From: Microbulbifer variabilis | Lineage (GTDB): Bacteria > Pseudomonadota > Gammaproteobacteria > Pseudomonadales > Cellvibrionaceae | Direction: 5' to 3' | Length of the DNA: 64,000 nt | Assembly (NCBI RefSeq): GCF_023716485.1 | Contig: NZ_CP092418.1 | Location: forward strand, 3,021,001 to 3,085,000 | Part shown: piece by piece, positions 42,342 to 61,613 of the stretch | Numbering within the stretch: position 1 is the stretch's first letter | Layout of the letters: each line of letters opens with the position of its first letter | The notes under the pieces: model-generated | Databases searched by the model: none | The model's input: the letters and a program-made list of their open reading frames with translations, nothing else | Told to the model about the DNA's origin: nothing | Position numbers and translations under genes: made by a program

Positions 42342-42356
42342 ATCCGCACCCGTAAC

Positions 42357-42433
42357 GCGCTCGTAGCTCAGCTGGATAGAGTACCTGGCTACGAACCAGG
42401 CGGTCGGAGGTTCGAATCCTCCCGAGCGCGCCA
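42357..42433 (+). tRNA. tRNA-Arg(ACG), copy 1
   Basis: 77 nt including encoded CCA. Acceptor GCGCTCG/CGAGCGC is paired, the anticodon stem CCTGG/CCAGG carries ACG at 42391-42393, and the T-arm has GGAGG-TTCGAAT-CCTCC. It reads CGU/CGC/CGA codons after A34 modification. The same 77 bases occur at 60193-60269. Confidence 0.97.
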
Positions 42434-42776: not shown

Positions 42777-43813
42777 ATGCAGGATCAGGACATCATTCAA
42801 ACCTACGGAAAACGACTCCGAGAACTGAGTAAACTGTGGGATTAGCCTCAGAAGAAGCAGGCCAGCAAGCGAGATACCAACTACCCCCACCTCAACAAGT
42901 ACGTGAGCGGAATGAATGAACCGACGCAGGAGGTACTGATCCAGCTGGCGGATATTTGTGTAGGTTTCCCAAGTATTTATTTAACTTTAAAATTGATTTT
43001 CAAGGGAAACTCCATAGAACAGGGCATTCCAGAGCATATCGCTGGTTTAAATTTTGTTTCTCTAAATACAGCAATGGCTAAGTCAGACATGTACTTATTT
43101 GGAGACTCATAAATTGAGATTTTCTCAAGATCACCATCCTCATTGATAAGTGCGACAACATCTAGCACTCCCCGCTTCATCGATATTTCATGCCCCTTGT
43201 ATAGAGGCCAATGTAGTGCCTTGAGCCCCTCTTTAGGGAATGGAGGTTCATCTCCCTCTTGAAAATTCTCATACTCCGAAGTAAATATCCGCTTTTCTTT
43301 TTCAGATAATTCACTATAGGGCCTATCAAAAGGAATTCTTCCAGATACTGCTACACGCTTGATATGGCTACCTGTCGGAGGATCAACTTTAATGACGTTT
43401 TCTTTTGAGAAAGCTAACATTGAAAAAAATAGCGGTATAGCAAAAAAGATAATTCTCATCATAAAAATCACTAAAAATAAGATTTCTTAAAGTTTAATTC
43501 TAAAATTGAGATAATTAAATATCAATACTCGCACAAAGATATTCAGCACCAAAAATTAGAAAAAAACACCTCCAAAACAATTAAAAAATTGACATCATAA
43601 TTTCTGACTTACTCTTCATTACTTACACCAGCCAACCTGCTGGCAGACCCGACGCATTCTCTCAGGGTCAACACGGACGAGCTACTCGGCGTAAAGCCGG
43701 TGAAGAAAATCAAGCAGCCGGACACCGCCACCAAGCGGCAGGTGATTCAGATGATCGATGCGATTATCGCCCAGCGCCAGGTGGAACATGCTATGCGGCC
43801 ATTGGAGCGCTAA
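42777..43813 (+). pseudogene. XRE-family regulator split by an insertion
   Basis: The N-terminal half (42777-42963) reads YGKRLRELSKLWD, then an in-frame TAG (42843-42845), then a continuing frame with LNKYVSGMNEPTQEVLIQLADI, an HTH_3-type core. The C-terminal half resumes in another phase at 43628 as LRVNTDELLGVKPVKKIKQ and runs to a stop at 43811-43813. About 0.66 kb of AT-rich DNA with a complete minus-strand gene (42977-43462) sits between them. The TAG and the split make it a pseudogene. An independent terminator follows at once, as for a former single gene. Confidence 0.8.
42977..43462 (-). CDS. Exported protein with TonB-C-like domain
   Basis: 161 aa, signal peptide about 1-19 (IIFFAIPLFFSMLAFS). 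The C-terminal region (GVLDVVALINEDGDLEKISIYES, then MSDLAIAVFRETKFKPAICSGMPC) follows the TonB C-terminal/energy-transducer pattern with strand-helix-strand and the FKPA turn. Secreted single-domain TonB-C proteins are common beside polymorphic toxins and in accessory DNA, with unknown roles. The gene lies entirely within the insertion that splits the XRE regulator. Confidence 0.65.
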   Translation of the reverse strand: MMRIIFFAIPLFFSMLAFSKENVIKVDPPTGSHIKRVAVSGRIPFDRPYSELSEKEKRIFTSEYENFQEGDEPPFPKEGLKALHWPLYKGHEISMKRGVLDVVALINEDGDLEKISIYESPNKYMSDLAIAVFRETKFKPAICSGMPCSMEFPLKINFKVK

Positions 43814-44006: not shown

Positions 44007-44396
44007 TCACTCATCAGACGCTATTTCCATAAGTAATTCTAAACACTTTTCGTCCTCCACATATCCGAACTCAATAGTTTCTGACTTTTTTCTTAAAAGA
44101 ATACTTAAGAGATAAGATTGAGAACCACTGTCTGGCTTTAGAAATAAATCGACCTCATCCAAAGAAAAACTTCCCTTAAAATTACTTTTTAATATTTTAA
44201 TTGAGCCTACTTCAGAATCTATACTAATTATTCTAGATTTATTTTTTTTCTCGTTTGCAAAAGAGAAAACCATTTTTCCATCTAAAACTTCACACTTTTG
44301 TGAAAAGTATTTCGTCAAAGTATCACCTATATTATCACAAGCTACAAGATGCATCGCTGTAAATAGTGTAGTTAATTTCAATATACGCGAAATCAC
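44007..44396 (-). CDS. Small lipoprotein, candidate immunity protein to the RHS toxin
   Basis: 129 aa. GTG start overlapping the RHS stop (GTGA), with GGAGGTG just upstream inside the RHS gene. Lipoprotein signal with LVAC (C20). The rest has no known domain; it is a beta-rich, charged protein. Position directly after a polymorphic toxin, coupled translation and a periplasm-facing anchor are those of cognate immunity proteins, which must protect the compartment in which the toxin acts. No homology supports this beyond context. Very AT-rich, like many immunity genes. Confidence 0.65.
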   Translation of the reverse strand: MISRILKLTTLFTAMHLVACDNIGDTLTKYFSQKCEVLDGKMVFSFANEKKNKSRIISIDSEVGSIKILKSNFKGSFSLDEVDLFLKPDSGSQSYLLSILLRKKSETIEFGYVEDEKCLELLMEIASDE

Positions 44397-47300
44397 AATT
44401 CACCTCCAAACCTCTGATAAAGAGCTCTAGGACTATTTATACCAGCACCAGTATTCTGACCAGCAATGTTTGCTATATGAGTTGCAAAACTTCCGCAATG
44501 CCTACCTGTAAGGCTGTATGTTTGAGGTCTATTTTGAATCCTTGAGATCTCATTCATCGCCCGACCATACTGAGCTTCTGTAATTTCAAAGGTCTTAGAA
44601 GCATTTAACCCATATTCCTTATTTAAATACTCACTATCGTCAAAGACCACACCATCAACGCCAGTTATAAATTCTTTGTTCTGAGTACCACCATTAGGCC
44701 AATATCCATACGTACTAATTTCCCCGTCTGGATTTTCTAGACTTACAAAAGCATGACCTATTTGGTCTTCTGAATCACTTAAATGAGCACCAACGGTTAG
44801 TTTCCATGCCCCCTTTTGTGCATCACAAGACATACCTTCTCTTTTATAGTCTTCACAGCTGGCTGTTTTGACTACCTCTTCAGGATCTTCCTCATCTTTT
44901 GAATCCGAATCATCACTATCATTGCTCTGAGCAGAGGAAGATACGGATTTACCACCCTCACTCCTGCCTAGTGGTGCTCCACCACCTGTGAATACGGGCC
45001 CACTTAATGCACCCGCAAGCCCCATATCTCCTCCGTTATACTTGTATCCCCAACCTTGTACATGTTCAATCTCGAAACCAGAAGGGTCAACAAAACTCAA
45101 CGGATTGTTAAGTACATAGGAATACCTGTTCCAATTCTGAGAAGTCGATGGAAATTGCACAATGGGATCAGGGCTCAAAAACCTGCCCAGGGTGGGATCA
45201 TAGATCCGGCCATTCATATGAACAAGGCCGGTTCTATCCAGGTGTTCATGTCCGGTAAAACCCCTCTTGGTGCTGAGCCCCTGCGCTGCTATTAGTTCTA
45301 CAATATCAGCCTTGCTTAACCCTCCGCTCCAATCACTCTTCTTGCGGGCACCGAAGGGATCAAAGGCCGTATCCAGGATAACAGCCCCAGATTCATCGGT
45401 TACCTTCTCAATAGAGCCCAGGTAGTCACGGTGCAAAAATTCGAAGACCTGAACCTTGATGCCAAGATGATCGGTAGCTGAGACCTGTAGGATATCTCCA
45501 CCAATTTGCACCTTCTCGATCTGCTGATAATCGGGATCATTGGCCGGAAGGAGATCTTCATAGTCACCCACAATAAACGCTTTTTCGGTCATCAGCTTCT
45601 GTTGGGATTCATCCCACCAGCTGGACTCTCGGTAATAGCGCTGCCCACTGGGGCCGTATTGGAAGCGATCTCTTGCTGTGGGAGTTGCAGTATCTTGTGC
45701 GCTCCCCAAAGTAATCTCTTCCGCCAATTGACGCGCGTTCCAGGTAATCCACCGATCGTTACCCACAGCAGCATCATAGCGAGTTAGAGAGCCATTCTGG
45801 TCATAGCCTAAGTTATTGACCACACCATTGATATTAACTTGGGTTACAGCATTGGGACCGGCATTGTTAACCTGCTCATATTGGTAACCAGTCACCTGAT
45901 TACTCACATTTCCCGTTGCTGATTTGCTAAGAATATTGCCCAGGGAGTCATAGAGTGTACTTAGGCTACGAAGATGGCTGCCATTCAGTAATGTCTCGCT
46001 GCCTTCCAATCGATTGAGTGCATCATAGGAAAAGCGCTCTTCCTTTTTATTGGCTCCGCTTATCGATAAGCGACTTTCCAGTGTACCGTTAGAACGCCAC
46101 TTGTAAATATTATTTTGGATAGAGCCAGCAGCAGTGTTAATGGAAGTAATACGTCCAGTATTCGGATCGTAATTTGTTTTCGTTGTTAGTGAATTACCAA
46201 AGGTAAACTCTAGTATTTTCCCTGAAGCATCCCGATCTTTAAAGGTTTTTAGGGTACTTATCCCATCAGTAATTTCTGACAAGAAACCTTGGTTGTTGTA
46301 ATGATAGCGAGCCTCAGCACCAGAAGGATAAACGAGTTTATCCAGGCGACCTGAATTATCATAACCATAAGTATGCTGATAATTGCGCTGCAAATCACCA
46401 GCTTGTAACGAGGTTTTTAAATCCTGCAATTGACCCGCAGAATTATAGATATAGTCTTCAGAAAATAGAGTCAATCCATTCTGACTATAACTTCGATTTG
46501 CAATGCTACCTATTGCATTTGCTGCATCATAAGTCCAACTGGCTACGCCTAAAGCATCGACCTGCTCACGCATACGCCCAAGCTTGTCATAGAGATAACT
46601 TAAGCTATCGCCCTTGTTATTTATCTGCTCTCTTATCTGGCCTAACCCATTGTAGTGAGTGACCACAGTACCGAAAGCAGGATCAATGGTTTTTGTACTG
46701 TTGCCAGCATTGTCATAAAAGAAACTGGCTTTAGTTGATAAGTCATTGTTAACAAGCACTGATTTCAATAGACCACTGCCATAGTAGTCATATTCTGTAG
46801 TCACTTGTTTATTAGTTCCCACAGCTTCAACTACTTTCACCTGGCTACCAGAAATATTGTAATAGTGATGCCTAGCCTGAGTTTCAACCAAGTTGCCATT
46901 ACTATCCAAGATATCTTCTTCTGCTTCGACCCTGATTAATTTCTGAGCCGTATCTGGATAGTACTTAGTGCGGACTTCACTACCATCTGGACTTGTGATT
47001 TTCTCAATACGGTCCTTTATATCGAAATGATAGATAGTCAGTGGTTTATTTTCCCCTAGATAGAAGGGATCCGTTTCTAGATATAAGCGGCCTTGCAAAT
47101 CATAATTAAATTCACGCCGAGCAATACGTGTTCCATCAAATGCCTTTTGATCCTGCTGCACTATTCTCCCCAGCAAGTCATAGTAGAGTTCAACTTTGGG
47201 AGAAATTGAAGAATCTTTGATTATTTTATAAGCTGCAAGAATATTACCAGCTACTGGACAAGTGCCAGCAAAGCATTCGGAATATGTCGTATTAAACACC

Positions 47301-49279
47301 ACTCCATCGGTATTGGTCTTCTCGATTTCGCGCCCAAAGGCATCATATTGCACACTAGTAGTACGGATATTGCTATCAGTGATCTCAGATACCAAGCCAA
47401 AGCGGTGATCGTAAGTTAGTGAGACCTTCTGGTCGAGAGCATTGGTTAATGTCCCAGGGTAGCGGTTATCTACAAAATCAGTTGCAGACGTTGTTCTTGT
47501 TTCTACATGGGCTCCGCTAGTACTTTCACTGACCAAATTACCCGAGGTGTCATAATCAAAATCAGTGCTTAATTTTAGATCTGCATCATCGGGAAAGCTA
47601 ACCCTAGTTGCGACCTTGTTCGTTGACAAATAAGGAAGAGAGACCACGGTATGAGTACGATCGGGAGCACCACTGGGGCCACCATCATACTCCCTAAGCT
47701 CCAGGCCGGATGCAAAGCCCACTAACCACTGACCATTTCCAACTCGGTTTTCAAAACTAGTGAAAATCTCGCGACTTCTCTCAATGCCACTCAAGGAAAA
47801 GTCAGAAATTTCGCCCCAGGTAACCGGTTTAGTTGGTAAGGTCGGGAGTTTATCGGTTTGCCCAAAGGAAGGGGTAATAATACCGCCCAAGCCATCTTGA
47901 TCAGCGGCCCCAGATAGGGATTTCGCTGTTTTCTCTACTGAAGTTTGATTCTCAAGCAGCTCTCCGAGTGTACCAAAGCTTCTCTTTCCAAAGCTGTTTT
48001 GTAGTGAACGATAACCAAGAACCTGGTTCTTTTCGATCAGGGTTTCAACACTTTTCTCTAAGAAGGGGTAGTAACTCTTATCTAAGCCAGTGGATAGCTC
48101 CATCACGCTATAACGATGACGCTCATCCGCCAATTTCTGCGCATGAGAACCATAACTTCCCTGGAACTGCAGCTTTCTCGCCACCTTACCAAAATGCGGG
48201 AAATCTTGACGGAATTGGCGGTAAGTAACGATATCCGACGCTAAATCATGGATTTTTTGTGCGTAGAAGCCCAGGAATCCCCAGCCCTTGGTACTGACAA
48301 CGCCAACACCTTGATAGGAATACTTGGTTTTATGCCAACCATTTTCCAAATCATCTGCCAAACCATTTGCCAGTCCATTGGATCTGTGCACTTCTCCGAC
48401 TACTGTCCGATAGTCACCATTATCGGCCTCAAGATTTTTCGCATTTTCGGGAAGAACACCATCCCCAAAGGGCCTTTCCAAGAAAGTAGCGTTACCAGAG
48501 GCAGAGGCTTGGCCAGTTACCTCACGTACCGTAGTGTGATAGAACCTAGTAGCTTTGCCTAAACCATCGATAATTTGCCAGATACCGGTATCGAGATCCA
48601 GGTCACTAGAGCTATTAACCTCTTCCCAATTGAATATAAGGGGGTTAAGGCATTGATAGCCAGTACCATGCTTATCATAACCGCAGAGTTGAACTTGCTG
48701 CAGACGGCGGTAATGCTGGGAATACTTGCTAGCAGGTTCTGGCTCAGTAATTAAGCGGTACTCTCTTAATAATTTATTGTCTAGGTAAACATTAATATGG
48801 TGGAGTAGAACCAACTGCTCTTGCTCAATTTCTCCCGAGGCCAGTGGTTGCGGGGGGGCATCGCTGCGGGTGCCATAGGCAAACTCTATACGTGCATCGT
48901 TTCCATTACCGTAGGTGATTTCTAGTGGATAATTAATACCTTCAACGGTATCAAGATGGTATTGATACGTTATGCTATTCCCAAAGGCATCAGTAACCTT
49001 GTTGATGCTCCAAGCAAAGCTCGGGTTCTTCCCTGCGCGGATTCGACTGTTATTTGTGTTACCAAACTCATGAACTTCACCATTAGGTTTATGTACCAGG
49101 AACCAAGGCTGACCACCTGTCTCTTTTAGTTCAATAAGGCTAAAGTCATCTCTAAGCTTTCGGTACTTCGAACCAGAGGCCCAATATTCTCCGGAAACAA
49201 GGACCAATGGCTGACCGTTCAAACACAGCGAATCCGTATCATCCAACTTAATGCGGTCTGTGTTGGGACGATTCTTCAC
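44393..49279 (-). CDS. RHS/YD-repeat polymorphic toxin, main open segment
   Basis: 1628 aa open segment; its first codon here (GTG) is only the first start after an in-frame TAG, and the real gene begins near 51109. It contains the remainder of the SpvB domain (LDDTDSLCLNGQPLVLVSGEYW), a long YD-repeat region, and the RHS core ending in DYLGSIEKVTDESG, GFTGHEHLDRTGLVHMNGR and GRFLSPDPI..PSTSQNWNRYSYV. The C-terminal ~200 residues after the core are the variable toxin tip: a Ser/Asp-rich spacer, then a domain with GHAFVSLENPDG and GRHCGSFATHI (His at 44753-44755, Cys at 44495-44497). That order suggests a permuted papain-like fold such as NlpC/P60 or LRAT-like. The immunity-candidate gene follows at once. 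Confidence 0.85.
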   Translation of the reverse strand: MKNRPNTDRIKLDDTDSLCLNGQPLVLVSGEYWASGSKYRKLRDDFSLIELKETGGQPWFLVHKPNGEVHEFGNTNNSRIRAGKNPSFAWSINKVTDAFGNSITYQYHLDTVEGINYPLEITYGNGNDARIEFAYGTRSDAPPQPLASGEIEQEQLVLLHHINVYLDNKLLREYRLITEPEPASKYSQHYRRLQQVQLCGYDKHGTGYQCLNPLIFNWEEVNSSSDLDLDTGIWQIIDGLGKATRFYHTTVREVTGQASASGNATFLERPFGDGVLPENAKNLEADNGDYRTVVGEVHRSNGLANGLADDLENGWHKTKYSYQGVGVVSTKGWGFLGFYAQKIHDLASDIVTYRQFRQDFPHFGKVARKLQFQGSYGSHAQKLADERHRYSVMELSTGLDKSYYPFLEKSVETLIEKNQVLGYRSLQNSFGKRSFGTLGELLENQTSVEKTAKSLSGAADQDGLGGIITPSFGQTDKLPTLPTKPVTWGEISDFSLSGIERSREIFTSFENRVGNGQWLVGFASGLELREYDGGPSGAPDRTHTVVSLPYLSTNKVATRVSFPDDADLKLSTDFDYDTSGNLVSESTSGAHVETRTTSATDFVDNRYPGTLTNALDQKVSLTYDHRFGLVSEITDSNIRTTSVQYDAFGREIEKTNTDGVVFNTTYSECFAGTCPVAGNILAAYKIIKDSSISPKVELYYDLLGRIVQQDQKAFDGTRIARREFNYDLQGRLYLETDPFYLGENKPLTIYHFDIKDRIEKITSPDGSEVRTKYYPDTAQKLIRVEAEEDILDSNGNLVETQARHHYYNISGSQVKVVEAVGTNKQVTTEYDYYGSGLLKSVLVNNDLSTKASFFYDNAGNSTKTIDPAFGTVVTHYNGLGQIREQINNKGDSLSYLYDKLGRMREQVDALGVASWTYDAANAIGSIANRSYSQNGLTLFSEDYIYNSAGQLQDLKTSLQAGDLQRNYQHTYGYDNSGRLDKLVYPSGAEARYHYNNQGFLSEITDGISTLKTFKDRDASGKILEFTFGNSLTTKTNYDPNTGRITSINTAAGSIQNNIYKWRSNGTLESRLSISGANKKEERFSYDALNRLEGSETLLNGSHLRSLSTLYDSLGNILSKSATGNVSNQVTGYQYEQVNNAGPNAVTQVNINGVVNNLGYDQNGSLTRYDAAVGNDRWITWNARQLAEEITLGSAQDTATPTARDRFQYGPSGQRYYRESSWWDESQQKLMTEKAFIVGDYEDLLPANDPDYQQIEKVQIGGDILQVSATDHLGIKVQVFEFLHRDYLGSIEKVTDESGAVILDTAFDPFGARKKSDWSGGLSKADIVELIAAQGLSTKRGFTGHEHLDRTGLVHMNGRIYDPTLGRFLSPDPIVQFPSTSQNWNRYSYVLNNPLSFVDPSGFEIEHVQGWGYKYNGGDMGLAGALSGPVFTGGGAPLGRSEGGKSVSSSAQSNDSDDSDSKDEEDPEEVVKTASCEDYKREGMSCDAQKGAWKLTVGAHLSDSEDQIGHAFVSLENPDGEISTYGYWPNGGTQNKEFITGVDGVVFDDSEYLNKEYGLNASKTFEITEAQYGRAMNEISRIQNRPQTYSLTGRHCGSFATHIANIAGQNTGAGINSPRALYQRFGGEL

Positions 49280-49294
49280 ACAGCGGCGGATCTC

Positions 49295-49990
49295 CTACAG
49301 ACCACTCAACCTCCATCCATAGCCCAGAATATCTTCTGGCAACATCTCATTATTTCTTTCCCGGTATCGAGCACCTGAATACTGAAGGCCCAAGCTAGGG
49401 ACCAAGTTATTAACCCCCGGCGCTACTTCGACAGGAATCGATATAACCGCGTCCCCTTCATAATTAACGTTTGCACTATAATTTGCAGTTCCTGGTGTAT
49501 CTGCAATTGCAAGACTGACCGCCGGCTCGATCCCCTCGAGATTGTGTACATCAATCCAATCACTTGTAGTCCATCCAGAGCACTCAGGGCCATTACAGGC
49601 ACGGACTCTGTAGCGATATTTATCTTCTATGTCTCCGCGAGCTGAATAAGTCCGCTCCTCTAGATTACCTGAGACCACTTTCCAGCAACTATTTCCACAG
49701 TTTGTGTCTGGGTCATTGCGACGCTCACGCTGTAACTCAAAAGAGGTCCATGTAAGGCTTGGTTCACTCCAACTGAGATCGTAATCACCAAACTCACTGT
49801 CACTAGGGAAAGAAGTAAATTTCGGTGCGTCTGGTGCGGGCAACGGCACATTGACCATCACAACTTTACGGCTATCACTGGGAGTCCAACCACTACAACC
49901 ATGGTCATTACAGGCCCGAGCCATAAAACGATATTCGCCACTGGGATCACTGGAGTTGAGTGTAACCTCCATAGAGGTTGCTGTACCCAA
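49295..49990 (-). pseudogene. RHS toxin N-terminal segment 2 (FN3 plus start of SpvB domain)
   Basis: In frame with both neighbours: the TAA at 50012-50014 precedes it and the TAG at 49295-49297 ends it, with no frameshift. It holds FN3-like blocks ending in YRVRACNGPECSGWT and the SpvB opening (PVEVAPGVNNLVPSLGLQYSGARYRERN with GYGWRLSGL). After GYGWRLSGL the sequence continues across the TAG as EIRRCVKN, just as intact SpvB proteins read S-IRRC. So it is a fragment of the same 2.2-kilocodon gene. Confidence 0.75.
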
Positions 49991-50011: not shown

Positions 50012-51109
50012 TTAGGTGTAACTCCCTCCATTGATACTGCACCGAAGCTCATAACGTGTTACCGCATCGAATGAGCCGGTAACTTCAGACCATACTACCT
50101 TAAAACTACTACTCTGGGTCCCGTGGTCAGGTTGCGTAAAGTTCCGCACAGTATCAGGCTGTCGACTCACAGTCACTGAAGAGGAATTTCTCCAGCCACT
50201 GTAAGTGACATAGGAACCGCCCTTTGCATAGGCCCTAACACGGTACTTATAAGTTCCATTAGTTAGCGGAGTACTTCCAGACGCCGGAACAGGCGTCGGC
50301 CCAGTGGCTGTGCTTGCACTAGAGTAAACTTGTGTCCAACCTGAGCAGGAATCTTTACATTGTTGTATCTGATAGCCCGTAACAGCATAACCCGAACCAG
50401 GTGCTGACCAATCGACGCTTATGCGCCCCTCACGGTCGACAGTGCCACTTGTTATATCCTTAAGGACAATGCTAGCCGGCGTATTCGGTGTACGGGCAAC
50501 ATTGACCCGGCGTTCGTTAGAAAAAGCCCCACAGCCGGTACTATTACAGGCTCGGACTTTGAAATCCCATGCTCCTGTAGATAAACCTGAAATCTTGGTG
50601 GAACTTGCCCCAATACCGTTGAGGGGAGACCAAGCCCCGTTGTTAATCTGCCTATAGACCTCATAGCGAGAGACAATACCTGAAGGTACTGGCCAGGATA
50701 AGGTAAAAGAACCGTTCGAACTATTTGTGGGGGCTGTTAGATTGCCTAGCTTAGGGGGCGCTTGTAATTTTACCGTTACTGTAACACTGCCCAATGCTGT
50801 ACCACTACCCGGAACCCATTCACCTATTATTGGATTCCAAATATCCCCTGAAAAAGCGACAACTTGATACCTATAGTCCCCATTTTCAGTGTGGGTAAAA
50901 GATCTAGAAGTACCATTTACATTATAGGTGCCAATAGACTTTGACCCTTTATGGACGCTTACTCCATAGTACTCGGCAGATGAATTTGTACTCCAACGAA
51001 TCGTATGCTTTCCATTTGAATTCGTGGTGCTTGCCCAAACCCCAGCAGTAGCAAATTCAGCAAAAAGTATTAAAAACAAACAACTAAAGAAAGAAATCCG
51101 TTTCATCAT
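50012..51109 (-). pseudogene. RHS toxin N-terminal segment 1 (signal peptide and FN3 repeats)
   Basis: Starts at tandem ATGs (51109/51106); signal peptide about 1-20 (FFSCLFLILFAEFATA). At least three fibronectin type III-like repeats follow, each ending in a phrase like FKVRACNSTGCGAFS, YRVRAYAKGGSYVTYS or the YELRC opening of the next. The segment ends at an in-frame TAA (50012-50014) inside an FN3 repeat, where the next segment takes over in the same phase. A Sec signal makes the full toxin a secreted or surface FN3-SpvB-RHS protein rather than a T6SS-loaded one. Confidence 0.75.
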
Positions 51110-51217
51110 AGCCAGACTACACGTAGAAAAAAGCTTCACACCAAAAGGGACCATCGGAGCCAATGAAGGCAAAAATAAAACAGTACATCCCTGTAAATTA
51201 GGCGCACCTTTTATCAC

Positions 51218-56784: not shown

Positions 56785-57811
56785 TTTATTAAATAGGCCT
56801 GAATGACTTACACGGAAAACGGGTTAATGCCGGTTACACATATATAGAGGATATTACCATAGCATGGCTCTCGGGTCTTGAACTTTCCGCTTCCGCCCGC
56901 TTTAGCAACCCAGGCCATGCCAATCTATAGGTAGGGGATGATCCCCTACCAGCAAAACACATAAACGCCCTCGATTTTTTATGCATCTTGCCAGCTTGTA
57001 ATTTTTTCAAGAAGAAGTACCTCAGTAGATAATTAGTGTTTTCGTTCTGCCCATTGAGTACTTCAATCTAATGTCGTTCTTTCAGGGCGACTGGTGGCAT
57101 CAGCTCCAGTAAGATTCCCAGCTTACCCATGTTGAAAATAACTAGCCTGGAACCAACGGGCCCCACATTACTATTGCCAAGGGCAGTATTTGTTATAACA
57201 ACCCAGGCATAAAATTGTGAGCCTAAATGAGACATGAATACAATATAATTTTCAATCACTCTCTTACAATAGAGCAGCGCAACGTGTATAGGGTTTTTAC
57301 CAGCAGCTATCCTGGCACACTAATCCTGCATTTAAATAGATTTTGACAACAAATGGTTAATAGTGACTACTAGGGACCAAAAGATATTTTCAAGCGCCAA
57401 CAAAGAGCAGCCTGACTCTTTTAAGCAGCCACAATACAGGAAAAAACTCAAGGCTTTATTTTAACTGCACAAGCACAATCAAGAACAGCTTGAAGAACCG
57501 TCCACCTTAGAGCTCTGACATCAAAAAAAGAATTTCCCCTGAAAAGGCAGAATAACGCTTAAGGTCGATCACGGGTATTTTGCACTGCACATAATATTGA
57601 TAAGTTATTAAGTTGTGACAACATCCACTTAGCCCCACACAAAATTCAGATGCTGCCAAATCAACCAGAGGTTAACAAATCAATCTCGATTAATTGCCTA
57701 GAGCCAGATAAAGTTCTAAGCCGGAGATAATTAAACTTAGTCAACTCAAGACCAGAGCATCCTCTTAAAACTTGTTATGCAATCACATAAACCTTGGAGA
57801 ATCATAAGAAA
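56785..57811. other. Long intergenic stretch with one palindrome
   Basis: GGTAGGGGA-TGA-TCCCCTACC (56930-56950) is a perfect 9-bp hairpin without a T-run. A 63-codon minus frame (57068-57259) is not convincing. The rest is AT-rich with nothing recognised. Confidence 0.5.
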
Positions 57812-58933
57812 ATGAACTTAGATAAATATATTCTTCTAACACTCTGCTTTATGTCTAGCGCTTTATGCTCCGCAGACACAATTAAAGTAGAAAATATATC
57901 TTACTCTGCCTCCATAATTAAAGTTGGTGCCGGCCAACCTGCAATTGCAGTAACTGACCTTAATTCAGACGGAAATCAAGATGTAATTATTGCAAACAAT
58001 TCGGACAACAACATAGTAACCTATCTTTCCAATGGCAATGGGACTTTGACACTAGCGGGAGATTTCCCCGCCGGTGACAGCCCTTCAGGTCTATCGACCT
58101 CTGACATCAATGGCGATGGGAACGTTGATGTTGTTATAGCCAACCACGAAACCTCATACGTCACCATGCTATTAGGAAATGGCAAAGGAGGTTTTAACCC
58201 CGCACCGAATTCACCATTAAACGTGTACGTAACACCTCACCCACATGCCGTCCGATTAAATGACCTTGATGGTGATAACAAAGTTGATCTGATTGTAGAC
58301 AACCGTAATCACGAAGGTTTACTCGTTCTCAAAGAACACGGGAATGGTGATTTTAAACTGCCAGGGAAGACTATCAAAGTGGGAGGAGACCCCTACCGGG
58401 GGTTTGCCATCAAAGACTTAAATAAAGACGGACACTCCGATTTGGTGACTCCAAATCAGAATGACATAGGCATATTAATAAATAAATCCGGCAAGGGTTC
58501 TTTCAGCTTAAGTAGTCTTGCGCAATCCGAAGTGCCATTTAGCGTTGAGGCGGCAGACATGAACGGAGACGGAAACATGGATTTACTTGTAGCGAACAAT
58601 CGCAATATCATTACTATAATCCCAGGAGATGGTAGCGGTAGTTTTCTTAAAAAGAAACAAATCGAAATCCAGGCATCTAATGGCGCCAAACAGATTGCAA
58701 CGGGAGATCTCAATGGCGATGATGTTGACGACGCTTTAGTCAGCAGTTGGTCAGGTGAAGTGCTTATTTTGATTGGAGGCCCGACGATCAAGTCAATCAA
58801 ATTTAAGAATTTTAACATTCCCAACCCATGGGGGGGCACACTTTTAGATTTAAACAAAGACGGTAAAAGTGACTTTATTGTTGCGGATGGCAACAGCAAT
58901 TTAGCAGCTGTGTATATAAGCCGGATAGAGTAA
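57812..58933 (+). CDS. Secreted FG-GAP/VCBS-type beta-propeller protein
   Basis: 373 aa from the ATG at 57812 (GGAGA upstream; an in-frame TTG at 57794 is possible). Signal peptide about 1-20 (LLTLCFMSSALCSA). Seven or so repeats with the calcium-binding signature D-x-N-x-D-G-x-x-D: TDLNSDGNQDVIIAN, SDINGDGNVDVVIAN, NDLDGDNKVDLIVDN, KDLNKDGHSDLVTPN, ADMNGDGNMDLLVAN, GDLNGDDVDDALVSS, LDLNKDGKSDFIVAD. This is the integrin-like FG-GAP propeller. Such proteins bind sugars, surfaces or partner proteins; no enzyme domain is attached. Calcium binding is inferred. Confidence 0.88.
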   Translation: MNLDKYILLTLCFMSSALCSADTIKVENISYSASIIKVGAGQPAIAVTDLNSDGNQDVIIANNSDNNIVTYLSNGNGTLTLAGDFPAGDSPSGLSTSDINGDGNVDVVIANHETSYVTMLLGNGKGGFNPAPNSPLNVYVTPHPHAVRLNDLDGDNKVDLIVDNRNHEGLLVLKEHGNGDFKLPGKTIKVGGDPYRGFAIKDLNKDGHSDLVTPNQNDIGILINKSGKGSFSLSSLAQSEVPFSVEAADMNGDGNMDLLVANNRNIITIIPGDGSGSFLKKKQIEIQASNGAKQIATGDLNGDDVDDALVSSWSGEVLILIGGPTIKSIKFKNFNIPNPWGGTLLDLNKDGKSDFIVADGNSNLAAVYISRIE

Positions 58934-60174: not shown

Positions 60175-60192
60175 GTGCGCACCCTCAACGAC

Positions 60193-60269
60193 GCGCTCGT
60201 AGCTCAGCTGGATAGAGTACCTGGCTACGAACCAGGCGGTCGGAGGTTCGAATCCTCCCGAGCGCGCCA
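60193..60269 (+). tRNA. tRNA-Arg(ACG), copy 2
   Basis: 77 nt including CCA, identical to 42357-42433. It has its own promoter and terminator of unlike sequence, so it is an ordinary second gene copy rather than a fragment restored by an integration event. Confidence 0.97.
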
Positions 60270-60307: not shown

Positions 60308-60443
60308 TTTATTTCTTCAGTAGATAGATTCACAAGTAGCGATTGCAGGCATACGACCATACACTTCTCATTAGCCTAAGGTAATCTCGGCTTCGGCCCG
60401 GCAGCATTCACTAACTCTTTAAGTAAGAGTGGCCTGCAGTCTT

Positions 60444-61613
60444 ATGCTTAAGCGTGCGATTTTAGCCCTACTCTGTATCCTTGTAATTTATATTGTTGCC
60501 GCTTACGTCTACAACAAGCACTTTACTCAGTCTGCCACCTTCAAAAGCTCCCCCTCCGAGCCCGAACGATCTGAAAGCCTGGATTACCTCAAAGAAAAAG
60601 ACACCATCAAAATCTTGATTGTAGATGGCGGCGGTGTCCGTGGGCTCATCCCCTTATATGTGCTCAACTATATCGAGAACAAACTAAACAAACCTATTAG
60701 CGAAGTTTTTGATGTTTATAGTGGTGTATCCAGCGGTGCTATTGTAGCCAGCGGCATCAACATCCCTGAAAAATTTATTCCCAAAAACTACACCGGGCAT
60801 GATTCAGCCACAGAGTACTTAATACAACTCTATAAAGAAGAAAGTGACTATTTGTTTTCCTCACCCTGGTATCACGATCTATTGACAGGCTGGGGGCTTT
60901 TTTCCCCCTCCTTCATGGGAGAACGGCTCCACCGTGTACTGGAAAACCACTATACAAAGTCGCTTTCTTTTACAGACTTAAATAACTTTGTCCTTATTCC
61001 TGCACTGGACATTCACAGTGGTGAAATACACCTTTTCAAAAATCGTGGGGATGCAATCAAACAATTACCTACCGACAGCTTATACCAACTTATCACGGCA
61101 GCAGTCAGTGCCGAGACCGCCTTTCCCCCGGTAGTCTTCAAAACACCAGAGCAAACCAGAGTGCACCGTTACTTTGCCGATGCAGGTCTAGCCATGAATA
61201 ACCCCACCAGTCTGGTGCTACTTGATATCCTTAAAGAGTTCCCAAATAAAAACTACTACGTTCTAATATTGGGGGCAGGTTCACCACCATTGGCCAGTAG
61301 CGAGGTAGATTATAGTGAGCTAAAAAACTGGGGGCGCATTCGCTGGATACGAGATGCTTTTTCTAATATCCAGAGATATATGGACCTTCAACAATTATAC
61401 GCTCTTGATCTCGCCCAACATTTCTCCGATAGCGACCGCCTAGAATACGATTATCTCAATATCGAAATTGCTGATCCATTCGTCGATATCTTTGACTACG
61501 ACTCCCTACACCATTTAAAAATTTATGCCGACCGCTTGATTGAAGAAAATCAACAGGACATACAAAGAATTATCGAGCGGCTCAGCCAGCCAGATGGAAC
61601 ATCTTCTCAATAG
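60444..61613 (+). CDS. Membrane-anchored patatin-like phospholipase
   Basis: 389 aa from the ATG at 60444 (a GTG at 60429 is an alternative). One N-terminal membrane segment (ILALLCILVIYIVAAYVY, about 5-23) anchors a patatin domain (about 45-345): oxyanion loop GGGVRG (about 61-66), nucleophile S96 in GVSSG and D246 in DAG. The Ser-Asp dyad is complete, so acyl-ester hydrolysis of phospholipids or lipids is expected, with the catalytic domain outside the cytoplasm. A decayed second copy of its C-terminus lies downstream. Confidence 0.92.
   Translation: MLKRAILALLCILVIYIVAAYVYNKHFTQSATFKSSPSEPERSESLDYLKEKDTIKILIVDGGGVRGLIPLYVLNYIENKLNKPISEVFDVYSGVSSGAIVASGINIPEKFIPKNYTGHDSATEYLIQLYKEESDYLFSSPWYHDLLTGWGLFSPSFMGERLHRVLENHYTKSLSFTDLNNFVLIPALDIHSGEIHLFKNRGDAIKQLPTDSLYQLITAAVSAETAFPPVVFKTPEQTRVHRYFADAGLAMNNPTSLVLLDILKEFPNKNYYVLILGAGSPPLASSEVDYSELKNWGRIRWIRDAFSNIQRYMDLQQLYALDLAQHFSDSDRLEYDYLNIEIADPFVDIFDYDSLHHLKIYADRLIEENQQDIQRIIERLSQPDGTSSQ

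What the first reader, a model, noticed from the sequence alone, without database searches (positions are those of the whole stretch)
44393..44980. RHS tip domain with a His-then-Cys papain-like signature
After the RHS core and a Ser/Asp-rich spacer the last ~160 residues contain GHAFVSLENPDG and GRHCGSFATHI. A conserved His ahead of a Cys suggests a circularly permuted NlpC/P60 or LRAT-like thiol hydrolase, for example a peptidoglycan amidase/peptidase or lipid acyl hydrolase. I cannot name a toxin family for it.
Basis: partly seen in the sequence, partly recalled or inferred. Interest (0 to 1): 0.7.

Follow-up and report, generated by a model that had tools for sequence, protein, structure and literature searches.

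The report
RHS toxin tip, permuted papain-like
The end of this large bacterial repeat protein looks like a small cysteine enzyme of the permuted papain kind, probably an antibacterial toxin that attacks a neighbour's envelope, with a likely protective gene beside it; here the gene is interrupted upstream.

Summary
The last 156 residues of the RHS ORF (44393-44863, minus strand) carry GHAFVSL and RHCGSF. Pfam and NCBIfam give nothing above cut-off; PADLOC and PHROGs nothing at E<=1. Profile searches found a scattered family: in 25 aligned members His37 and Cys123 are invariant, and a profile built without the window tip recovers it at 7e-20, next best 0.6. AlphaFold2 (pLDDT 80.6, pTM 0.75) starts a strand at His37 and a helix at Cys123, the order expected of a permuted NlpC/P60 thiol enzyme. 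No fold comparison was obtained, so the fold is inferred. Relatives occur on RTX-type proteins, in a VgrG-DUF4123-PAAR operon and on another RHS protein, often beside a small exported-looking ORF. The window has one too: 44007-44396, lipoprotein-like, overlapping the RHS stop by 4 bases. I read it as an envelope-acting acyl-hydrolase toxin with its immunity gene, lipid more likely than peptidoglycan; substrate and toxicity are untested. Two in-frame stops (49295, 50012) interrupt the RHS gene upstream, so this copy may be silent.

The parts
44393..44863 (-). C-terminal tip domain (P0003, 156 aa), permuted papain-like thiol hydrolase candidate
44753..44755 (-). codon of the invariant His (His37 of P0003)
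   Evidence: sequence; 25 of 25
44495..44497 (-). codon of the invariant Cys (Cys123 of P0003), predicted nucleophile at a helix start
   Evidence: sequence; 25 of 25; model
44864..45076 (-). linker with Ser/Asp/Glu-rich spacer between RHS core and tip (boundaries approximate)
   Evidence: by eye
45077..45298 (-). RHS-associated core domain TIGR03696
   Evidence: residues 1328-1401 of the ORF, converted
44393..49279 (-). ORF with RHS repeats, RHS core and tip; its start holds part of SpvB (26.3 bits, cut-off 22)
49295..49297 (-). in-frame stop (TAG) in the SpvB-like region
49295..49990 (-). middle piece: Fn3-like and start of SpvB-like region (both Pfam scores below cut-off)
50012..50014 (-). 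in-frame stop (TAA) in the Fn3 region
50012..51217 (-). N-terminal piece: signal-peptide-like segment (by eye) and Fn3 domains
44007..44396 (-). 129-aa lipoprotein-like ORF (LVAC lipobox by eye), candidate immunity gene, overlaps the RHS stop by 4 bases
   Evidence: only sub-threshold matches and none

Best explanation
The tip is a permuted NlpC/P60-type (papain-like) thiol enzyme of a family not modelled in the libraries searched. It is the toxin end of a polymorphic RHS protein. In an intact chassis it would be exported, reach the envelope of a neighbouring bacterium and use Cys123 activated by His37 to attack an acyl bond, most likely in phospholipid or acylated lipoprotein, less likely in peptidoglycan. 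The overlapping lipoprotein-like ORF 44007-44396 would protect the producer in the periplasm. Shown: sequence family, invariant His and Cys, predicted order of structural elements, neighbour ORF. Inferred: fold identity, catalysis, substrate, delivery, immunity. In this genome the chassis gene carries two in-frame stops, so the copy may be inactive or decaying.
For: His37, Gly53 and Cys123 invariant in 25 of 25; leave-out profile E 7.1e-20, next best 0.6. AlphaFold2 of the window tip: mean pLDDT 80.6, pTM 0.75, strand 37-43 starting at His37, helix 123-133 starting at Cys123. A second member, L025: His27, strands 30-36 and 39-50, helix 82-97, helix 114-124 starting at Cys114 (pLDDT 78.3, pTM 0.70). 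Profile A4 against PDB sequences: 7 of 8 listed chains match over the Cys segment and belong, partly by recall, to papain-like thiol enzymes; all at E 0.23 or worse, so only a trend. PPPDE (PF05903) touches 7 of 25 members, best 5.3e-5, below its cut-off. Context: L025 lies with VgrG-type, DUF4123 and PAAR genes; RTX relative L011 lies with HlyD and C39-ABC transporter genes (L040); L033 is another RHS tip with a 118-aa signal-peptide-like ORF overlapping by 4 bases, as in the window. Upstream small ORFs of three relatives are homologous (L041/L040 1e-19; L041/L043 6e-17). The own genome has other RHS proteins with different ends, one an ART tip followed by an ADP-ribosylglycohydrolase gene. 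Tip and small ORF are AT-richer than the core (GC 0.401 and 0.305 against 0.447).
Against: No family model reaches its cut-off for the window tip. No fold comparison was obtained, the His-Cys distance was not measured, and residues 61-69 of the model are below pLDDT 50. hhalign against DUF2459 gave 21.7% probability and covered only the Cys half. No polar residue between His and Cys is invariant (best Q98, 18 of 25; D76, 16 of 25). Two stops break the gene upstream, and the tip-bearing ORF begins without a signal peptide (by eye). Ten of 25 members are short stand-alone proteins not shown to be toxins. The small neighbour ORFs are not shown to be one family, and P0002 has no recognised relative. 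In the published assays Tox-Act1 and TseH were each active in only one of two phospholipase formats (PMC12994826, passages seen), so even there the substrate is not simple.
Confidence: 0.62

Rival explanations
1. Same permuted thiol enzyme and toxin, but the target is peptidoglycan (amidase or endopeptidase).
For: Exported-looking neighbour ORFs point to an envelope target without saying which. Weak PDB-sequence matches include the amidase Tse1 over its Cys segment. Another RHS tip of this genome (L076) looks by eye like an L,D-transpeptidase-type domain, without a Pfam hit at E<=0.01.
Against: The permuted members compared in PMC3142127 have hydrophobic S1 pockets, and Tox-Act1 left a sacculus-like remnant and cleaved PG and PE (PMC12994826); passages of both seen.
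Confidence: 0.2
2. The domain is a processing peptidase that cuts the RHS protein or a partner to release a toxin, not the toxin itself.
For: Papain-like domains are proposed as releasing peptidases in some polymorphic toxins (PMC3482391, passages seen).
Against: It is the extreme C-terminus, with nothing beyond it to release. In L004, L005, L010 and L011 the same domain is the extreme N-terminus, and in L025 it belongs to a 296-aa protein in a VgrG-PAAR operon.
Confidence: 0.08
3. The domain is a lipid or lipoprotein acyl transferase rather than a hydrolase, the toxin acting by misplacing acyl chains.
For: LRAT and DUF4105/Lnb are permuted-fold acyltransferases (PMC12994826, passages seen); Lnb_N (PF13387) touches 2 of 25 members, best 0.047.
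Against: Those matches are below cut-off and do not include the window tip; no test of activity.
Confidence: 0.1
4. A relic (not exclusive of the readings above): the RHS gene is a pseudogene and the tip and neighbour ORF have no present function.
For: Two in-frame stops upstream; no signal peptide by eye on the tip-bearing ORF.
Against: 1628 codons stay open, the tip keeps the invariant residues and the neighbour ORF is intact, so decay, if real, looks recent. Sequencing or assembly error is not excluded.
Confidence: 0.35

Closest known systems
Tox-Act1, T6SS effector of Salmonella (PMC12994826, passages seen)
   Same: permuted His-then-Cys toxin, small adjacent immunity gene, toxic in the periplasm (from the paper)
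   Different: T6SS effector rather than a tip on a Sec-type RHS protein; its immunity protein has two TM helices; no sequence comparison with it was made here
TseH-like, PF25218
   Same: permuted T6SS effector family (PMC12994826); one member of our family (L017) touches the model at E 0.16
   Different: window tip not hit; best member 12.3 bits against a cut-off of 27
PPPDE / Peptidase_C97 (PF05903)
   Same: a permuted papain-like family (PMC3142127); aligns over the Cys segment of the window tip (13.4 bits) and over more of L024
   Different: the matches whose scores were shown are below the cut-off of 29.2 bits (13.4, 23.5, 21.6)
Lnb_N / DUF4105 (PF13387), YiiX and LRAT
   Same: permuted NlpC/P60 acyl enzymes (PMC3142127, PMC12994826)
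   Different: Lnb_N in 2 of 25 members, best 0.047; YiiX and LRAT families not in the list at E<=1
Polymorphic RHS toxins (PMC3482391)
   Same: RHS core, variable tip, small gene right after it
   Different: in the passages seen (12 of 21 places) NlpC/P60 and most Tox-PL tips are listed as Cys, His, Asp; no permuted tip was seen there. One search counts one 'circularly permuted' in that paper, outside what searched, which I did not see

Membership tests
permuted NlpC/P60 (PPNE) | catalytic His before Cys in sequence, both conserved | tested here: met
   25 of 25 rows of A4; L032, a hit without the pattern, was dropped beforehand, so the count leans to the motif
permuted NlpC/P60 (PPNE) | N-terminal beta subdomain with His, C-terminal helical part with Cys at a helix start | tested here: inconclusive
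   element order fits in two AlphaFold2 models; no fold comparison, no coordinates
permuted NlpC/P60 (PPNE) | polar third catalytic residue | tested here: inconclusive
   no invariant polar residue between His and Cys (best 18 of 25); PPPDE1 has Phe at that place (PMC3142127, passage)
permuted NlpC/P60 (PPNE) | hydrophobic S1 pocket, lipid or acyl substrate | not testable with these tools
   no coordinates, no assay
TseH-like PF25218 | Pfam gathering score | tested here: not met
   window tip no hit at E<=1; best member 12.3 of 27 bits
PPPDE PF05903 | Pfam gathering score | tested here: not met
   window tip 13.4 of 29.2 bits; best member by E-value 23.5
Lnb_N PF13387 | Pfam gathering score | tested here: not met
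   window tip no hit at E<=1; best member 13.7 of 22.2 bits
DUF2459 PF09601 | profile-profile match over the domain | tested here: not met
   21.7% probability, 52 aligned columns, against 5 members
Tox-Act1 | sequence match to the family | not tested
   no model of that name came up in the scans; the effector was not fetched
canonical NlpC/P60 | Cys before a conserved His | tested here: not met
   in columns occupied in the window tip no His after Cys123 reaches 13 of 25
polymorphic RHS toxin | RHS core followed by a variable C-terminal tip | tested here: met
   TIGR03696 73.3 bits; the core but not the tip matches other RHS loci of the genome at E<=1e-3 (7 fetched stretches)
polymorphic RHS toxin | immunity gene next to the tip | tested here: inconclusive
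   overlapping lipoprotein-like ORF; protection untested

The most novel reading that the evidence does not exclude
A separate, unnamed branch of permuted papain-like toxins that moves between unlike delivery proteins (Sec-type RHS, RTX/type I, VgrG-PAAR/type VI) and has secreted stand-alone cousins, attacking acylated lipids or lipoproteins in the periplasm and countered by several unrelated periplasmic or membrane immunity families.
Probability: 0.25. Interest if true: 0.65.

Novelty: new member of a known kind. Interest (0 to 1): 0.45.

Why it matters
[quoted passage not shown] A further family, unclaimed by the libraries searched and found on RHS, RTX and VgrG-linked chassis, would widen that group beyond type VI secretion and give directly testable toxin-immunity pairs. 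The broken chassis in this genome may be a case of tip decay.

Tried and rejected
Searches with the tip alone found nothing in plasmids, phages, viral contigs or PDB sequences, only itself in 293 genomes of the order and 398 of the phylum, and itself plus two relatives in 369 genomes of the class. In its own genome two further weak places (E 0.105 and 0.208, L002 and L003) were not taken further; L003 was looked at and set aside by eye. Relatives L004, L005 and L011 found nothing in plasmids. Profile A1 found nothing in PDB sequences or viral contigs. Profile A1 gave 6 of 369 genomes in the class, A2 gave 19 of 398 in the phylum at E<=0.01 (window genome and G102 included, and G102's only match, L032, was dropped). 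In one search only 9 candidates were scored in some genomes, so these are lower bounds. Family-level searches around G522, G599, G313 and G327 found only the known places. DUF2459 was followed and not confirmed. A tree did not place the window tip: long branch, RHS pair 34/52. The match between the small ORFs of L044 and L045 is weak (0.002); I claim nothing on it.

Rows dropped before A4: of 23 places, the window's own copy (already present as P0003), L032 (55 positions, no His/Cys pattern), L035 and L036 (near-copies of L023). So 19 of 23, plus L004, L005, L009, L010, L011 and P0003, make 25.

Full report
What is there. On the minus strand the ORF 44393..49279 (1628 aa) holds RHS repeats, part of SpvB and an RHS-associated core, and ends in a 156-residue tip, P0003, after a linker with a Ser/Asp/Glu-rich spacer. 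Upstream the gene is in three pieces in one reading frame: 50012-51217 with a signal-peptide-like segment (by eye) and Fn3 domains; 49295-49990 with Fn3-like and early SpvB-like sequence, both below Pfam cut-off; and the 1628-aa ORF. A TAA at 50012 and a TAG at 49295 separate them. I describe this and mend nothing.

Neighbour. ORF 44007-44396 (129 aa) overlaps the RHS stop by 4 bases and by eye has a hydrophobic start and an LVAC lipobox. Only sub-threshold matches came up (none), one of them an NCBIfam model for putative T6SS immunity lipoproteins (E 0.05, 13.7 of 43 bits).

Family. The tip alone matched two relatives in 369 genomes of the class, both N-terminal domains of long proteins with RTX-like repeats by eye. 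Profiles gave 6 of 369 genomes in the class and 19 of 398 in the phylum at E<=0.01, window genome included. In 25 aligned sequences His37, Gly53 and Cys123 are invariant and Pro145 is in 24. L032, which lacks the pattern, was left out beforehand. As a check, a profile rebuilt without the window tip scores it at 7.1e-20 (next 0.6); one without both RHS tips still finds the window tip at 2.7e-19 (next 0.71) and the tip in L047, the same place as L033, at 1.1e-5 (next 0.11). These E-values are for small sets.

Structure. AlphaFold2 gave pLDDT 80.6 and pTM 0.75 for the window tip, with residues 61-69 below 50, and 78.3 and 0.70 for L025. Both have the His at or just before a strand pair, then a long helix, then a helix starting at the Cys. 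In permuted papain-like enzymes the first, beta subdomain carries the His and the second, helical one the Cys (PMC3142127, passages seen). By sequence, 8 PDB chains are listed at E up to 10 and 7 of them match over the Cys segment: a cysteine hydrolase (6v98, 0.23), a PPPDE protein (7whm), three chains whose listed names include Tse1 or type VI secretion exported 1, and two named uncharacterized that I take for Tse1 structures by recall. The eighth is an APEX nuclease. Alignments were shown for the first four only. That 6v98 is TseH is recalled. PPPDE touches 7 of 25 members (best 5.3e-5, below cut-off), Lnb_N 2, DUF2459 2, TseH 1, and nine further Pfam families with no evident link 1 or 2 each. 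NCBIfam added nothing.

Setting of the relatives. RTX repeats, HlyD and a C39-ABC transporter are confirmed by Pfam for L011 (as L040). L004 and L005 show RTX-like repeats by eye. L009, L010, L016, L019 and L034 are grouped with them by eye only, from a shared PRRDPLVLDLDGDG-like stretch (a looser form in L016's neighbour ORF) or a neighbouring ABC transporter; L016 itself is a 147-aa ORF. In all eight a small ORF with a hydrophobic stretch near its start lies just upstream (by eye), and three of these ORFs are homologous. L025 is a 296-aa protein between a PAAR gene and DUF4123 and VgrG-type genes, with a 123-aa membrane-like ORF. L033 is a second RHS tip with a signal-peptide-like ORF overlapping by 4 bases. 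G918 has three places within 6 kb; one, L035, is followed by a lipoprotein-like ORF overlapping it by 4 bases (by eye), and the neighbours of the other two were hidden by my overlap filter and not examined. Ten members (L017, L020, L021, L024, L026-L031) are short proteins from outside the class; their neighbourhoods were not examined, so a toxin role is neither shown nor excluded.

Own genome. PF05593 matches fall in nine long ORFs including the window's. Three that look near-identical by eye at their N-termini and cores (2008, 2033 and 2045 aa) have three different ends and three different small ORFs after them. Another ends in an ART domain followed by an ADP-ribosylglycohydrolase gene. In the seven stretches fetched, the window's tip has no match at E<=1e-3 while its core and Fn3 parts do. 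This is the pattern of polymorphic toxins with exchangeable ends.

How it probably works. An exported RHS protein presents the tip to a neighbour's envelope; His37 activates Cys123, which attacks an acyl bond; the lipoprotein-like neighbour keeps the producer safe. Tox-Act1, a permuted NlpC/P60 toxin, is toxic in the periplasm, cleaves PG and PE, loses toxicity when its His or Cys is replaced and is neutralised by a protein with two TM helices (PMC12994826, passages seen). The same passages report that it was inactive in a second assay format, and that TseH was active only in that second one and only at pH 8.9. I lean on this for the lipid reading; nothing here tests it.

Novelty. No library searched names the domain. 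A paper search for 'permuted nlpc' with toxin, immunity and LRAT returned only PMC12994826. Other searches (3 papers, 10 of 15 listed) showed no title or abstract start naming such a tip; apart from PMC12994826 and PMC3482391, of which passages were seen, these were listings only. Subscription journals and preprints are not held, so this is not proof of absence from print. I rate it a new member of a known kind.

Noticed in passing
42355-42433 and 60191-60269: Two identical 79-nt stretches holding tRNA-Arg(acg) lie 17.8 kb apart and flank the RHS region; GC is 0.56-0.59 at 36-42 kb and 0.42-0.48 from 42 kb on. No integrase was noticed by eye among the listed ORFs; no search was made for one.
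   Followed up: partly
60429-61613 +: Patatin-like ORF by eye (GGGVRG, GVSSG) right after the second tRNA-Arg.
   Followed up: no
L076, L077, L078: Own-genome RHS proteins with different ends and small neighbour ORFs, including an ART tip with an ADP-ribosylglycohydrolase gene.
   Followed up: partly
L009, L010 (also L041): Repeated PRRDPLVLDLDGDGLET-type modules near the relatives look like displaced toxin cassettes (by eye).
   Followed up: no
L042 5919-6449 and 6754-7284 -: Two 176-aa signal-peptide-like ORFs, similar by eye, upstream of relative L019 look like a duplicated immunity gene.
   Followed up: no
42977-43471 -: 164-aa ORF with a TonB_C domain downstream of the candidate immunity gene.
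   Followed up: no
57794-58933 +: 379-aa exported-looking repeat protein with DLNGDG-type motifs, FG-GAP/VCBS-like by eye.
   Followed up: no
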